From: Burkholderia lata
GTDB taxonomy: Bacteria > Pseudomonadota > Gammaproteobacteria > Burkholderiales > Burkholderiaceae
Assembly (NCBI RefSeq): GCF_000012945.1
Contig: NC_007510.1
Coordinates: 682,001 to 746,000, forward strand
Reading direction: 5' to 3'
Length of the DNA: 64,000 bases
A model generated the notes under the pieces. The model was not told the DNA's origin. It was given only the letters and a program-made list of their open reading frames with translations, and searched no databases. Positions 43,659-48,292 of this stretch are shown piece by piece. Position 1 is the stretch's first letter. Each line of letters starts with the position of its first letter. The position numbers and the translations under genes were made by a program.

Positions 43659-44048
43659 TCAGGCGCGCAGCATCAGCGTGGCATGATAGCGCCACACTTT
43701 CGGATCGGCGCTGACGAGCGGCATGCCTTCATGGAGCGCCTGCGCGACCATCACGCGGTCGAACGGATCGGCATGATCCGGAAAATCGGGCAACGCAGCG
43801 ACGCCTTCGACGTGATCGCTGCTGATCGGCAACTCGGCAAAACCTGCGAGCCGGAACGCCGAGCGTGCATCGCGCGGATGAACGGGCAGATTGCCTTTGC
43901 GGTATTTGATCGCAATTTCCCAGATGGATGCGGCGCTGACGTACAGCGTGTTTTCGGGATGCTCGATCAACGCGGCCGCGGTCGCCGAAAGTTGAGGCGC
44001 GCCTTCAGCCGCCCATAGCGCGATGTGAGTATCGAGCAGAAGCTTCAC
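43659..44048 (-). CDS. VapC-type PIN-domain toxin
   Basis: This 129-residue protein has the PIN ribonuclease fold. The acidic residues expected to bind magnesium are D6 (LLLDTHIALW), E44 (SIWEIAIKYRKG), D94 in DHADPFDRVM and D115 (LVSADPKVW). The group with LDTHIALW and WEIAIK cleaves RNA and is neutralised by a Phd-type partner. Its ATG overlaps the stop of the antitoxin gene by four bases. The toxin appears intact. Confidence 0.9.
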   Translation of the reverse strand: MKLLLDTHIALWAAEGAPQLSATAAALIEHPENTLYVSAASIWEIAIKYRKGNLPVHPRDARSAFRLAGFAELPISSDHVEGVAALPDFPDHADPFDRVMVAQALHEGMPLVSADPKVWRYHATLMLRA

Positions 44049-44320
44049 GGTGCGAGCCCCTGTTCCGAACTGGCGTCGAAGTCGGTGGCGATCGATTCGT
44101 CACCGGCATTGAACGCCTCGATGGTTGTCGGGATGTTCAGCCCGGCAAGCAACTGACGCGCGGCGCCGATCCGCTTCGGCGCCGCGTAAGGAACGATTCG
44201 CGCAACCGGATGACCATTGCGGGCGATCACGACTTCCGACTCGCGCCCCAATTCAAGCGCTTCGACGAGGCTTGAGAGCCGCGACTTGGCATCGTGCATG
44301 TTGACGGTCGGCATCGTCAC
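44045..44320 (-). CDS. Phd/YefM-family antitoxin
   Basis: This 91-residue protein has the Phd N-terminal DNA-binding region (TVNMHDAKSRLSSLVEALE, EVVIARNGHPVARIVPY) and an acidic C-terminal tail that should wrap the toxin. It precedes and overlaps the toxin gene, as usual. An ATG two codons downstream is an alternative start. The repeats just upstream are probable autoregulatory sites. Confidence 0.9.
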   Translation of the reverse strand: MTMPTVNMHDAKSRLSSLVEALELGRESEVVIARNGHPVARIVPYAAPKRIGAARQLLAGLNIPTTIEAFNAGDESIATDFDASSEQGLAP

Positions 44321-44327
44321 TCCGATG

Positions 44328-44356
44328 GTTAGCTAGATAACGTTAGCTAGTCTAGC
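44328..44356. promoter_or_regulatory. Candidate toxin-antitoxin operator
   Basis: GTTAGCTAG occurs twice as direct repeats (44328-44336 and 44342-44350), and GCTAG-T-CTAGC (44346-44356) forms an inverted repeat. They lie 8 bp upstream of the antitoxin start, where Phd-type proteins autorepress. The local AT content is raised. Confidence 0.6.
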
Positions 44357-44435
44357 AGAGCGAGATGACGACCGCACGCTGGCCGCATGGCCAACCCGCC
44401 GGCAGGCGGGGCATGCGGCCAGCCCGTTTGCTCCG

Positions 44436-45509
44436 TCAGTTCCCGCTGCCGCGTGTGACGCGGCGCGCCTTCACCGATTCCGCGAGGCCTTCGAGCACCT
44501 TCACGCTGTCGTCCCACGCGATGCACGCATCGGTGATGCTCTGGCCGTAGATCAGCTCGCAGCCTTCCTTCAGGTCCTGGCGCCCCTCGACGAGATGCGA
44601 TTCGATCATCACGCCGACGATGCGGGCGTCGCCGGCCGCGATCTGGCGGCCGATGTCGGCGCAGACGGGGATCTGGTTCTCGTGCTTCTTCGAGCTGTTC
44701 GCGTGGCTCGCGTCGATCATCAGGCGCGCGGCGAGGCCGGCCTTGCCGATGTCCGCGCACGCGGCGTTCACGCTGTCCGCGTCGTAGTTCGGTGCCTTGC
44801 CGCCGCGCAGGATCACGTGGCAGTCCTCGTTGCCGGCCGTCGACACGATCGCCGAATGGCCGCCCTTCGTCACCGACAGGAAATGGTGCGGCTGCGATGC
44901 GGCCTTGATCGCGTCGACCGCGATCTTCACGTTGCCGTCGGTGCCGTTCTTGAAGCCGACCGGGCACGACAGCCCCGACGCGAGCTCGCGGTGCACCTGC
45001 GATTCCGTCGTACGCGCGCCGATCGCGCCCCACGAGATCAGGTCGGCGATGTACTGCGGGCTGATCATGTCGAGGTATTCGGTCGCGGCCGGCAGGCCCA
45101 TCTCGTTGATCTGCAGCAGCAACTCGCGCGCGGTGCGCAGCCCCTCGTTGATCTTGAAGCTGTTGTCGAGGTGCGGATCGTTGATGAGGCCCTTCCAGCC
45201 AACCGTCGTGCGTGGCTTCTCGAAGTACACGCGCATCACGATTTCCAGTTCGCCCTTGAAGCGCTCGCGCTCCTTCACCAGCCGGCCCGCGTACTCGATC
45301 GCCGCCTTCGTGTCATGGATCGAGCACGGCCCGACCACGACGATCAGCCGGTCGTCCATCCCGTGCAGGATGCGGTGCATCGACTGGCGCGAGTTGTAGA
45401 TCAGCTCGGACGCGGCTTCGGAGCACGCGAATTCGCGGATCAGGTGGGCGGGCGGCGTCAGTTCCTTGAGTTCGCGAATGCGGACGTCGTCGGTGTTGTG
45501 CGGGGGCAT
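44436..45509 (-). CDS. aroG: 3-deoxy-7-phosphoheptulonate synthase (class I DAHP synthase)
   Basis: This 357-residue enzyme condenses phosphoenolpyruvate and erythrose-4-phosphate, the first step to Phe, Tyr and Trp. It has the microbial class I layout of AroG/AroF/AroH (VVGPCSIHDTKAAIEYAGRL, MRVYFEKPRTTVGWKGLINDP, GARTTESQVHRELASGLSCPVGFKNGTDG). An AAGGAG site lies 5 bp before the ATG. Upstream lie a promoter, an aromatic-rich leader peptide and a terminator (45644-45837), which suggest transcription attenuation by aromatic amino acid supply. Confidence 0.95.
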   Translation of the reverse strand: MPPHNTDDVRIRELKELTPPAHLIREFACSEAASELIYNSRQSMHRILHGMDDRLIVVVGPCSIHDTKAAIEYAGRLVKERERFKGELEIVMRVYFEKPRTTVGWKGLINDPHLDNSFKINEGLRTARELLLQINEMGLPAATEYLDMISPQYIADLISWGAIGARTTESQVHRELASGLSCPVGFKNGTDGNVKIAVDAIKAASQPHHFLSVTKGGHSAIVSTAGNEDCHVILRGGKAPNYDADSVNAACADIGKAGLAARLMIDASHANSSKKHENQIPVCADIGRQIAAGDARIVGVMIESHLVEGRQDLKEGCELIYGQSITDACIAWDDSVKVLEGLAESVKARRVTRGSGN

Positions 45510-45643
45510 GCTGTTTCTCCTTGGTTCCGGGCGCCGTTCGGTCAGTGCGAGTGGGCGTGCGGCAGATTCATCAATTCAAGCGATTCAGTGGTTTCGGTCG
45601 GGGCCGCGGGACCGCAGCGGCGGCGACCGGGTGGCGAAGGGCG
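45510..45643. other. aroG 5' untranslated region downstream of the attenuator
   Basis: There are 134 bp between the terminator T run and the aroG start. Apart from the aroG ribosome site, no feature was recognised. A second promoter here cannot be excluded. Confidence 0.5.
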
Positions 45644-45676
45644 AAAAAAAACCGCCGGGTTCGCCGGCGGTTTTTT
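45644..45676 (-). terminator. Attenuator terminator (segments 3:4) of the aroG leader
   Basis: On the minus strand, AAAAAACCGCCGG (segment 3) and CCGGCGGTTTTTTTT (segment 4) form a stem of about 13 bp with a CGAAC loop and a T tract. It lies 29 nt after the leader peptide stop and 134 nt before aroG. Segment 3 can instead pair with segment 2 (45720-45728) in the leader peptide coding region. Confidence 0.88.
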
Positions 45677-45705
45677 CGGGAATTTCGGTTGCGCTTTACG
45701 CGCCA

Positions 45706-45771
45706 TCAACCCTCTCGATCCGCCAGCGGTCTGAGATACCAAAAAAAGTAAAAGTAAAACTTGGCGGACAT
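45706..45771 (-). CDS. aroG leader peptide, aromatic-rich (21 residues)
   Basis: The peptide starts MSAK and continues with eight aromatic residues in a row (FYFYFFWY), then LRPLADREG and TGA. Such a run is very unlikely by chance in a genome of this composition, where TTT codons are rare. Segment 1 (CCGCCA, 45762-45767) can pair with segment 2 (CGCTGGCGG, 45720-45728), and segment 2 can pair over 9 bp with CCGCCGGCG of the terminator (45662-45670). A ribosome stalled on aromatic codons would free segment 2 and prevent termination. The ribosome site is poor. An in-frame TTG at 45792 is an alternative start. Confidence 0.8.
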   Translation of the reverse strand: MSAKFYFYFFWYLRPLADREG

Positions 45772-45808
45772 GACGGAGATTCGGTTCGTCAAAAAAGTTG
45801 ATTCGGAA

Positions 45809-45837
45809 TTTATACCCCGTCGCCGGGCGGCTGGCAA
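45809..45837 (-). promoter_or_regulatory. Promoter of the aroG leader transcript
   Basis: On the minus strand, TTGCCA (45832-45837), a 17-bp spacer and TATAAA (45809-45814) match sigma-70 boxes at 5/6 each. Transcription would start near 45802, about 30 nt before the leader peptide ATG. Confidence 0.75.
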
Positions 45838-45855
45838 CCGGGAAACGTCGAAAAT

Positions 45856-45899
45856 GCGGACATTCCGCGCGTTTTCTTCAAAATGCGCGGAATGTCTGC
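45856..45899 (-). terminator. Hairpin after tldD, probable terminator
   Basis: Fifteen-nt arms (45856-45870 and 45885-45899) pair with one G-U-type mismatch around 14 nt. On the minus strand the stem is followed by ATTTTC. It lies 12 nt after the tldD stop and before the aroG leader promoter, so it separates the two units. Confidence 0.65.
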
Positions 45900-45911
45900 G
45901 CCGAGATGCGG

Positions 45912-47378
45912 TTATGCCGTACCGCCGACCGTCATCCTGTCGATCCGCAGGGTCGGCTGGCCGACGCCGACCGGCACGCTCTGGCCTTCCTTGCCGCACA
46001 CGCCGACGCCCGAGTCGAGCGACATGTCATTGCCGATCATGCTCACGTCCTTCAGCGATTCGGGGCCGCTGCCGATCAGCGTCGCGCCCTTCACCGGGTA
46101 GGTGACCTTGCCGTTCTCGATCATGTACGCCTCGGACGCCGAGAACACGAACTTGCCGTTCGTGATGTCGACCTGGCCGCCGCCGAAGTTCACCGCGTAC
46201 AGGCCGTTCTTCACCGATGCGATGATTTCCTGCGGATCCTTGTCGCCGTTCAGCATGTAGGTGTTGGTCATGCGCGGCATCGGCAGTGCCGCGTACGACT
46301 CGCGCCGTGCGTTGCCCGTGACCGGCATCTTCATCAGGCGCGCATTCAGCGTGTCCTGGATGTAGCCCTTCAGGATGCCGTCCTCGATCAGCGTCGTGCA
46401 CTGCGTCGGGTTGCCTTCGTCGTCGATGTTCAGCGAGCCGCGGCGGTTCGGCAGCGTGCCGTCGTCAACGACGGTCACGCCCTTCGCGGCGACCCGCTCG
46501 CCGATCCGGCCCGCGAATGCCGACGAGCCCTTGCGGTTGAAGTCGCCCTCGAGGCCGTGGCCGATCGCTTCGTGCAGCAGCACGCCCGGCCAGCCCGGCC
46601 CGAGCACGACCGTCATCGCGCCGGCCGGCGCGGGGCGGGCGTCGAGGTTGACGAGCGCCGCATGCACGGCGTCGTCGACGTAGCGCGACAGCACGTCGTC
46701 GGTGAAGTAGCCATAGTCGAAGCGGCCACCGCCGCCGCCGGAGCCGATCTCGCGACGGCCGTTCTGCTCGGCGATCACCGTGACCGACACGCGCACGAGC
46801 GGGCGGATGTCGGCCGCGAGCGCGCCGTCGCTGCGTGCGACCAGCACGACGTCGTACTCGCCGGCGAGGCCTGCCATCACCTGCGTGATGCGCGGGTCGC
46901 GGCCGCGTGCCATCTGCTCGATGCGCTCGAGCAGCTTGACCTTGGCCGTCGCGTCGAGCGATGCGAGCGGATCGGACGGCAGGTACAGGTCGCGGCCCGA
47001 GATGCCTTTCAGCGACGTCGCCGCCTTGATCTTCTGGCGGCCGCCGCCGGCTGCTGCGATCGCCTTGGTGGCCGCAGCGGCTTGCGCGATCGCTTCCGGC
47101 GACAGGTCGTCGGAATACGCGAACGCGGTGCGGTCGCCCGCGACCGCGCGCACGCCGACGCCCTGGTCGATGCTGAAGCTGCCCGATTTGACGATGCCTT
47201 CCTCGAGGCTCCACGCTTCGCTGCGGGTCGCCTGGAAGTACAGGTCCGCATAGTCGACGCGATGCGTGAAGATGTCGGCGATCGTGCGCGTGAGCAGGCT
47301 TTCGTCGAGGCCGTACGGCGTGAGCAGGATGTCCTTCGCCAGCGCGAGGTTGCGGATGCCGGGTTCGATGATGTTCAT
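45912..47378 (-). CDS. tldD: Metalloprotease TldD
   Basis: This 488-residue protein is the TldD subunit of the TldD/TldE (PmbA) zinc protease, which matures modified peptides and degrades others. The metal site is HEAIGHGLEGD, within GWPGVLLHEAIGHG. The C-terminal TGSGPESLKDV-type region is present as IGSGPESLKDVSMIGND. The start at 47378 (MNIIEPGIRNLALAKD) fits the family, and the longer open frame upstream is rejected. pmbA is not in the window. Confidence 0.94.
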   Translation of the reverse strand: MNIIEPGIRNLALAKDILLTPYGLDESLLTRTIADIFTHRVDYADLYFQATRSEAWSLEEGIVKSGSFSIDQGVGVRAVAGDRTAFAYSDDLSPEAIAQAAAATKAIAAAGGGRQKIKAATSLKGISGRDLYLPSDPLASLDATAKVKLLERIEQMARGRDPRITQVMAGLAGEYDVVLVARSDGALAADIRPLVRVSVTVIAEQNGRREIGSGGGGGRFDYGYFTDDVLSRYVDDAVHAALVNLDARPAPAGAMTVVLGPGWPGVLLHEAIGHGLEGDFNRKGSSAFAGRIGERVAAKGVTVVDDGTLPNRRGSLNIDDEGNPTQCTTLIEDGILKGYIQDTLNARLMKMPVTGNARRESYAALPMPRMTNTYMLNGDKDPQEIIASVKNGLYAVNFGGGQVDITNGKFVFSASEAYMIENGKVTYPVKGATLIGSGPESLKDVSMIGNDMSLDSGVGVCGKEGQSVPVGVGQPTLRIDRMTVGGTA

Positions 47379-47464
47379 GCGGATATCGGGGTTTCTCAAA
47401 AAGTTGTCGGGTGCTTCTGGGCAGATGGGTTGGCCGCGCGGCGTTTCAAGCGGCGCGGCCGGAA

Positions 47465-48292
47465 TCAGGTGAGCACGCGGTGCCGCCACGCGGGCAGGCT
47501 CTGGCGCACGTCGGCGATGCGCTGCGGATCGATCGCGCCGAGCACGACGCTGGCGCCCACGTCGCGGACCGCGACTATCTCGCCCCACGGGTCGATCAGC
47601 ATGCTGTGGCCCCAGGTGCGCCGGCCGTTCTCGTGCTTGCCGCCTTGCGCGGCCGCGAGCACGTAACACTGGTTCTCGACGGCCCGCGCGCGCAACAGCG
47701 TTTCCCAGTGCGCGCGGCCCGTCGTATACGTAAACGCCGACGGGACGACGATCAGCGCGCAGTCACCCAGCCTGCGATACAGCTCCGGAAAGCGGAGATC
47801 GTAACAGACCGACAGGCCGACCCGCCCGAACGGCGCGTCGAACGCGACGACCGTATCGCCCGCGCGAATCGTGCGCGCCTCGTCGAACGACTCGTCGCCT
47901 TTCTCGAAGTTGAACAGGTGGATCTTGTCGTAGCGCGCGGCTTCGTTGCCGGACGGATCGAACACGAGCGTCGTGTTGAGCACGCGATCGGGCTCCGGCG
48001 CCTTCAACGGTAGCGTGCCGCCGATCACCCAGATGCCGTGGCGACGTGCGGCGTCCGCGAGGAAGTGCTGGATCGGGCCGTCCTGGTAGGGTTCGGCGAG
48101 CGCGAGCTTGTCGGTGTCGCGGTGGCCCATGAAGCAGAAATACTCGGGCAGCAGCACGAGCTGCGCGCCTTCGCCGGCGGCTTCCGCGATCAGGCGGCGG
48201 GCTTCGGCGAGATTGCGCGCGACGTCCGGCGTGCTCACCATCTGCAGCGCGGCGACCTGGAAGGGCGTGGCGGAACGGGTGTGGTCGGTCAT
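47465..48292 (-). CDS. Nitrilase-family carbon-nitrogen hydrolase (Nit1/YbeM-like)
   Basis: This 275-residue enzyme has the full Glu-Lys-Cys triad: E50 (LVLLPEYFCFMG), K123 (YDKIHLFNFE) and C163 (LSVCYDLRFPELYR). The motifs DKIHLFNF and CYDLRFPE place it near Nit1/YbeM-type deaminated glutathione or omega-amidases, unlike the CWEN nitrilase at 4007. Repair of deaminated glutathione is therefore a likely role but is not proven. It lies 86 bp upstream of tldD in the same direction. Confidence 0.88.
   Translation of the reverse strand: MTDHTRSATPFQVAALQMVSTPDVARNLAEARRLIAEAAGEGAQLVLLPEYFCFMGHRDTDKLALAEPYQDGPIQHFLADAARRHGIWVIGGTLPLKAPEPDRVLNTTLVFDPSGNEAARYDKIHLFNFEKGDESFDEARTIRAGDTVVAFDAPFGRVGLSVCYDLRFPELYRRLGDCALIVVPSAFTYTTGRAHWETLLRARAVENQCYVLAAAQGGKHENGRRTWGHSMLIDPWGEIVAVRDVGASVVLGAIDPQRIADVRQSLPAWRHRVLT

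What the first reader, a model, noticed from the sequence alone, without database searches (positions are those of the whole stretch)
45644..45837. Complete transcription attenuator upstream of aroG with an FYFYFFWY leader peptide
On the minus strand a promoter (TTGCCA-N17-TATAAA), a 21-codon ORF with eight consecutive Phe, Tyr and Trp codons, and a strong U-tract terminator precede aroG. Segments fit the classical model. Segment 1 (CCGCCA, 45762-45767) pairs with segment 2 (45720-45728). Segment 2 pairs over 9 bp with the terminator's 5' arm (45662-45670). Segments 3 and 4 form the terminator. Attenuation by aromatic amino acids is well known for trp, pheA and pheST leaders. I do not recall a DAHP synthase attenuator that uses all three aromatic residues in Burkholderia. 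The weak ribosome site is the main doubt.
Basis: partly seen in the sequence, partly recalled or inferred. Interest (0 to 1): 0.92.

Follow-up and report, generated by a model that had tools for sequence, protein, structure and literature searches.

The report
Aromatic amino acid attenuator before aroG
In front of the gene for the first enzyme of aromatic amino acid synthesis lies a short RNA switch that should let the gene be read only when the cell's protein-making machinery stalls for lack of phenylalanine, tyrosine or perhaps tryptophan, and the same switch sits before the same gene in many related bacteria.

Summary
A covariance model matches 248 of 299 family genomes; behind all 52 hit loci inspected lies aroG, in beta-, Xanthomonadaceae-like and alphaproteobacterial lineages. 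The core pairs GGCGG/CCGCC stand in 131 of 147 leaders. With a model ribosome, 2:3 can form while aromatic codons wait and not just after; the switch falls within one codon of the last aromatic codon in 106 of 122 leaders. Best reading: classical ribosome-mediated attenuation by shortage of charged Phe or Tyr tRNA, perhaps Trp. Missing ribosome sites are the rule: 2 of 130 leaders have one. The kind is known (trp, pheA, C. glutamicum aroR-aroF); I found no Rfam family and, in nine searches of open papers, no report of this one. Equilibrium folding favours the terminator, so control would have to be kinetic. There are no expression data; the regulation is inferred.

The parts
45809..45837 (-). 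sigma-70-like promoter TTGCCA-N17-TATAAA; expected transcription start near 45802 (inferred)
   Evidence: sequence; of 20 same-genus leaders fetched, 18 have TTGCCA and 19 TATAAA upstream (read by eye); not flagged by the strict consensus scan
45772..45802 (-). about 31-nt 5' UTR without Shine-Dalgarno sequence, U-rich
   Evidence: start site inferred
45706..45771 (-). leader ORF MSAKFYFYFFWYLRPLADREG with eight consecutive aromatic codons (45759-45736)
   Evidence: codon variation among 21 same-genus sequences, the window included
45762..45769 (-). segment 1, pairs with segment 2 (protector, 1:2)
   Evidence: fold; weakly kept at the aligned columns of other lineages
45720..45728 (-). segment 2, antiterminator 5' strand CGCTGGCGG, inside the ORF
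   Evidence: 9 bp with segment 3; pairing counts; core GGCGG/CCGCC in 131 of 147 leaders
45662..45670 (-). segment 3, shared by antiterminator (2:3) and terminator (3:4)
45644..45658 (-). segment 4 and U-tract of the intrinsic terminator
   Evidence: 96.5% of pair cells paired, with covariation
44436..45509 (-). aroG, type I 3-deoxy-7-phosphoheptulonate (DAHP) synthase, the regulated gene, with its own SD (AAGGAG)

Best explanation
A ribosome-mediated transcription attenuator that ties aroG to the supply of charged aromatic tRNAs. RNA polymerase starts near 45802 and a ribosome starts the SD-less leader ORF. If Phe- or Tyr-tRNA (perhaps Trp-tRNA) is short, the ribosome stops in the FYFYFFWY run; it covers segment 1 but its front edge ends just before segment 2, so segment 2 pairs with segment 3 as soon as that is made, the terminator cannot form in time and aroG is read. 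If all are supplied, the ribosome runs on over segment 2 to the stop codon, segment 3 pairs with segment 4, and transcription ends at the U-tract. Without translation 1:2 and 3:4 form and transcription also ends. Shown here: the anatomy, its conservation, the pairing, the geometry. Inferred: start site, translation, termination, the response and its dependence on each of the three amino acids.
For: Element before aroG: model match in 248 of 299 family genomes at E<=1e-3 (246 have E below 1e-5, and the 150 places listed are all full-length), 42 of 200 order genomes and 44 of 398 phylum genomes (both E<=1e-5, overlapping samples, all listed places full-length). aroG is present in 52 of 52 hit loci inspected, 18-136 nt behind the hit in the 51 measured; the model holds no aroG sequence, though it was trained on leaders of aroG loci. 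Pairing: 3:4 covariation 0.156 against 0.074 shuffled; 2:3 0.098 against 0.057; in one lineage segments 2, 3 and 4 change together (L036 GGCGG/CCGCU/AGCGG, L108 AGCGG/CCGCU/AGCGG). Translation: among 21 same-genus ORFs codons 5 and 6 vary synonymously while Y6 F7 Y8 F9 W11 never change residue. Geometry: the last aromatic codon ends 11, 14 or 17 nt before GGCGG or a like core in 118 of 136 leaders; model switch within one codon of it in 106 of 122, with on average 91% of aromatic codons but 1.6% of codons 2-6 past the run permitting 2:3. Phe is TTT in 141 of 184 leader codons but 61 of 309 aroG codons of the same 47 loci.
Against: No expression, ribosome or start-site data. In the finished leader RNA the terminator form is more stable than the antiterminator form by about 7-12 kcal/mol with no ribosome or with one at codon 5, 8 or 11; in the full-length fold 2:3 is absent at every ribosome position, so antitermination must be kinetic. 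In 10 of 16 species tested the model lets 2:3 re-form once the ribosome sits at the stop codon, which would spoil termination unless polymerase has already passed; in the window it does not. Two of the 16 (L005, L018) show no clean switch, and 16 of 122 leaders switch more than one codon away or never. The 2:3 core is so conserved that most of its pairs carry little covariation, and its count of pairs changed on both sides is reached by 141 of 500 shuffles. 35 or 36 of the 80 named aroG loci lack leader plus terminator (L065 had only 55 nt upstream).
Confidence: 0.88

Rival explanations
1. Arrest-peptide attenuator: the nascent FYFYFFWY chain itself stalls the ribosome in response to a small molecule, rather than empty aromatic codons doing so.
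For: The run is nearly invariant at residue level within the genus.
Against: Across lineages F, Y and W swap places, the N- and C-terminal residues differ, and the first aromatic codon moves between positions 4 and 13 while the distance to segment 2 stays nearly fixed; that suits codon sensing, not a fixed stalling motif.
Confidence: 0.05
2. The terminated leader is mainly a trans-acting small RNA or small mRNA, as rnTrpL/peTrpL of Sinorhizobium meliloti, and attenuation is secondary.
For: A discrete RNA of about 160 nt is predicted; S. meliloti trpL starts at the AUG and its RNA and peptide act in trans (PMC7298713, passages); many leaders here also look leaderless.
Against: Conservation is concentrated on what cis-attenuation needs and aroG lay in all 52 hit loci inspected. 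The two do not exclude each other.
Confidence: 0.05
3. The hairpin is only a terminator of upstream tldD and the ORF is chance.
For: tldD lies upstream on the same strand in the window.
Against: A separate inverted repeat with a T-run follows tldD before the promoter (45894-45851, by eye); the core pairs persist in 131 of 147 leaders and the spacing in 118 of 136; an aromatic run of this length is not expected by chance.
Confidence: 0.01

Closest known systems
Corynebacterium glutamicum aroR-aroF attenuator (PMC4046766 and PMC11802643, passages seen; the original Neshat et al. 2014 not seen)
   Same: Leader peptide with aromatic codons (Phe-Tyr-Phe) before a DAHP synthase gene; reported to respond to Phe limitation but not to Tyr.
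   Different: Another phylum, three aromatic codons, no Trp named; I did not compare the sequences.
Enterobacterial trp, pheA and pheST attenuators (PMC11802643, passages)
   Same: Leader-peptide attenuation with aromatic control codons.
   Different: Different genes, one amino acid each. The Rfam scan of 44000-47500 gave no amino acid leader family even at E<=5.
Sinorhizobium meliloti trpL (PMC7298713, PMC10117765, passages)
   Same: Attenuator leader translated from a leaderless RNA.
   Different: Trp only, before trpE; the Burkholderia type here has a short 5' UTR.
uORFC-13-1 motif of Acholeplasma (PMC8632094, passage)
   Same: Candidate Phe-containing uORF with terminator before aroF, a DAHP synthase gene.
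   Different: Mollicutes, has an RBS; a U-run coding at least one Phe.

Membership tests
Ribosome-mediated (leader peptide) transcription attenuators | short leader ORF rich in codons for an end product of the regulated pathway | tested here: met
   8 of 21 codons Phe/Tyr/Trp before the first enzyme of their pathway; 106 of 106 distinct peptides contain Phe and Tyr (they were picked for aromatic content, not for having both)
Ribosome-mediated (leader peptide) transcription attenuators | intrinsic terminator between ORF and gene | tested here: met
   covariation; the scan did not flag it
Ribosome-mediated (leader peptide) transcription attenuators | antiterminator that shares the terminator's 5' arm and is blocked by a ribosome past the control codons | tested here: met
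   (computation only, on RNA cut before segment 4)
Ribosome-mediated (leader peptide) transcription attenuators | protector stem 1:2 | tested here: inconclusive
   present in the window; weakly kept at the aligned columns of other lineages
Ribosome-mediated (leader peptide) transcription attenuators | readthrough rises on starvation for the coded amino acid and needs leader translation | not testable with these tools
   needs a reporter experiment
Any of the 4227 Rfam families, the amino acid leaders among them | score at or above the family's gathering score | tested here: not met
   best match over the element 25.8 bits against a gathering score of 48, an unrelated sRNA
C. glutamicum aroR-type attenuator | sequence homology to aroR | not tested
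   aroR sequence not fetched

The most novel reading that the evidence does not exclude
One homologous attenuator-aroG cassette, older than Burkholderiaceae and passed between classes together with aroG, works as a general aromatic sensor (an OR gate for Phe, Tyr and often Trp) started by SD-less or leaderless translation. In Burkholderiales, Xanthomonadaceae and some alphaproteobacteria it would be the main transcriptional control over entry into the shikimate pathway, the role that TyrR and TrpR repression has in enterics, and its terminated RNA may also act in trans.
Probability: 0.4. Interest if true: 0.72.

Novelty: new member of a known kind. Interest (0 to 1): 0.55.

Why it matters
If true, a large group of bacteria controls the entry of carbon into the shikimate pathway by a translating ribosome rather than by a repressor. 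The leaders collected here (106 distinct peptides) are natural variants in which the aromatic-sensing logic, the position of the ribosome's front edge and the SD-less start of leader translation could be measured. It would also give annotation pipelines an RNA family that Rfam 15 lacks, and a possible biosensor for aromatic amino acids.

Tried and rejected
Rfam: only sub-threshold chance matches. The consensus promoter/terminator scan missed both elements. Secondary matches of the model in ten genomes (25 matches, 10 of them full-length) begin at model position 49 or later, mostly the terminator alone; I do not count them as attenuators. Two near matches of the codon pattern elsewhere in the own genome read, in frame, FYFYF in a 95-codon and FHFYFIW in a 438-codon open frame; they are not in short ORFs and I did not pursue them. 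Second type I aroG copies (L002, L115-L120) have no leader, 7 of 7 examined; five further second copies were not examined. A first tree labelled seven leader-bearing loci as lacking it; relabelled, the label needs 12 changes against 39.5 shuffled. Forced-helix energies for ribosome positions past codon 11 clash with the mask and are not used. Rows dropped: L004 (near copy) from the alignment; L031, L054 and L075 (aromatic ORF but no recognised terminator) from several counts, though L031 and L054 stand in the 136, the 147 and the 47. Looking for a published Burkholderia leader RNA: section 13 of PMC4603805 names no such RNA in its tables and the word aroG is not in its main text; its supplements could not be read. 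Literature searches; Vitreschak et al. 2004 (known to me by recall and from reference lists) is not held and may contain related predictions.

Full report
WHAT IS THERE. Between tldD and aroG on the minus strand the sequence holds, in order, TTGCCA-N17-TATAAA (45837-45809), a stretch without a Shine-Dalgarno sequence, the ORF MSAKFYFYFFWYLRPLADREG (45771-45706), a small hairpin, and a GC-rich stem with eight U (45670-45644), then 134 nt to the aroG start. aroG is a type I DAHP synthase. The own genome (8.68 Mb, three contigs) has two more DAHP synthases, a second type I copy (61% identical) and a type II enzyme. I looked upstream only of the second type I copy, and it has no such leader. An eight-codon aromatic run is unique in the window and not reached by shuffles.

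CONSERVATION. I fetched 80 named aroG loci (the scan had more candidates than it kept). An aromatic leader plus terminator stands before aroG in 44 of 80 (with L017 added by hand), 45 if L063 with only four aromatic codons in eight is counted. Positives include Burkholderia, Paraburkholderia, Caballeronia, Trinickia, Cupriavidus, Noviherbaspirillum, Janthinobacterium, Rugamonas, Massilia, Bordetella, Xanthomonas, a Stenotrophomonas MAG, Dyella and Devosia. Negatives include Pantoea, Dickeya, Erwinia, Enterovibrio, Photobacterium, Methylotenera, Azoarcus, Thauera and Rhodocyclus. A covariance model from 43 leaders has one strong match in the own genome, before aroG. It matches 248 of 299 genomes of the family at E<=1e-3; two of these (G086, G264) have E above 1e-5, where terminator-only matches also occur. 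The matching genomes include 41 of the same genus, the own among them; none of the 20 non-matching genomes shown is of that genus, and 31 more are not listed. In the order it matches 42 of 200, in the phylum 44 of 398, both at E<=1e-5. All 52 loci of full-length hits that I checked hold aroG, 18-136 nt behind the hit in the 51 measured. Of eight family genomes without a model match that I examined (of 51), three lack aroG, four have aroG without a leader, and one (G021, L108) has a leader that the model missed, with stems that have changed together.

STRUCTURE. On the 43-row alignment the terminator pairs in 96.5% of cells, four pairs show changes on both sides, and the covariation score is 0.156 against 0.074 in shuffles. 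The antiterminator 2:3 pairs in 85.7% of cells (22.5-59.2% when slid by 1-3 columns), score 0.098 against 0.057; three pairs are changed on both sides, a count that 141 of 500 shuffles reach. The core GGCGG/CCGCC is kept in 131 of 147 leaders; of the 16 others two have no recognised terminator and 14 still give a duplex. In the L036/L108 lineage segment 3 has U for C and segment 4 A for G, and in L108 segment 2 has A for G as well. Stem 1:2 of the window is weakly kept elsewhere.

TRANSLATION AND GEOMETRY. Among 21 same-genus leaders, codons 5 and 6 vary synonymously (TTT/TTC, TAC/TAT); residue changes are F5 to L once, F10 to Y once, Y12 to H in seven, G21 to E once. The last aromatic codon ends 11 nt before the GGCGG-like core in 69, 14 nt in 33 and 17 nt in 16 of 136 leaders. 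It is 11 nt in all 11 Xanthomonadaceae-type leaders and most alphaproteobacterial ones, but 16 nt in three Devosia-type leaders, and 11 or 17 nt in most Oxalobacteraceae. The first aromatic codon lies anywhere from codon 4 to 13. I folded the RNA made up to just before segment 4, with 12 nt before the P codon to 10 nt after the A codon blocked by a ribosome. In the window 2:3 has probability 0.85-1.00 for codons 2-11 and at most 0.08 from codon 12 on. Over 122 parsed leaders of 125 distinct ones, the last permissive codon lies within one codon of the last aromatic codon in 106 (51 exactly); 15 lie further off and one never forms 2:3. The rows are related, so they are not 122 independent trials. 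The edge moves by about one codon if the assumed cover is 7 or 11-13 nt instead of 8-10. [quoted passage not shown] Phe in the leaders is TTT in 141 of 184 codons against 61 of 309 in aroG of the same 47 loci; slow control codons, or a need for an unfolded U-rich stretch, would give this.

START OF TRANSLATION. Only 2 of 130 distinct leaders have GGAG, AGGA or GAGG at -18 to -4, against 39 of 44 aroG genes under a lenient choice of start. In Xanthomonadaceae-type (11 of 11) and alphaproteobacterial leaders (15 of 17) a -10-like hexamer ends 12 nt or less before the ATG, usually 4-9, so those leaders look leaderless. Elsewhere this holds for 2 of 3 Bordetella-type, 12 of 21 mixed, 1 of 16 Oxalobacteraceae and 2 of 62 Burkholderiaceae leaders. 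In 39 of 62 Burkholderiaceae leaders the hexamer ends 36-39 nt before the ATG, and in 18 none lies in the 45 nt scanned. The hexamer test is loose (TA plus four of six matches), so single cases prove nothing. S. meliloti trpL is an attenuator ORF reported as leaderless (PMC7298713 and PMC10117765, passages). So SD-free initiation looks like a rule of this element, not a flaw in the window.

EVOLUTION. In a quick AroG tree of 149 rows the leader label needs 12 changes against 39.5 in shuffles; starred branches force at least 5. Alphaproteobacterial AroG proteins form one group (support 94) and join the Xanthomonadaceae-type rows plus L081 on a branch with support 97, inside the mainly betaproteobacterial, leader-bearing part; L072, a Lysobacterales MAG with leader, lies elsewhere. 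Transfer of aroG with its leader is the simplest reading; rooting was at the midpoint only, so this is inference.

KNOWN OR NEW. The mechanism class is textbook. DAHP synthase attenuators are in print for C. glutamicum aroF (passages) and as a candidate in Acholeplasma (passage). Attenuation of E. coli aroF-tyrA was hypothesised (passages), and a 2005 survey lists putative attenuators before DAHP synthase operons in Vibrio and others (passages). Nothing on a proteobacterial aroG leader of this kind turned up in nine searches of the held open-access papers nor in Rfam 15. Subscription papers, notably Vitreschak et al. 2004, were not readable, so priority is uncertain. I file it as a new member of a known kind.

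WHAT IS NOT SHOWN. Start site, translation, termination in vivo, and response to each amino acid. In C. glutamicum the aroR leader holds a Tyr codon, yet Tyr supply is reported not to matter (PMC11802643 passage), so a codon is not proof of a response; in the window Trp11 and Tyr12 sit at the edge where the model is most sensitive.

Noticed in passing
44320-43659 (minus): A Phd/YefM-type antitoxin (PF02604) and a PIN-domain protein (PF01850), overlapping by a few bases, lie just downstream of aroG: a likely type II toxin-antitoxin pair.
   Followed up: partly
45894-45851 (minus): Inverted repeat CATTCCGCGC...GCGCGGAATG followed by a short T-run after tldD, perhaps tldD's own terminator, which would insulate the aroG promoter (by eye).
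   Followed up: no
L014:1326-1458: In Candidatus Burkholderia humilis (a leaf-nodule symbiont, by recall) the leader ORF is frameshifted in the aromatic run while the stem core is kept, as expected if control is decaying.
   Followed up: no
45736-45738 (codon 12): Tyr12 is His in 7 of 21 same-genus leaders and in several Caballeronia; it is also the first codon at which the model ribosome blocks the antiterminator.
   Followed up: partly
L173-L186, L045, L057, L063, L078: Alphaproteobacterial type I aroG genes carry the same kind of leader and group with Xanthomonadaceae-type AroG, suggesting transfer of gene and switch together.
   Followed up: partly
L227 (G000:C3:1784432-1785748) and L002: The genome has two further DAHP synthases, one type II and one type I. 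The type I copy has no leader; upstream of the type II gene was not examined.
   Followed up: partly
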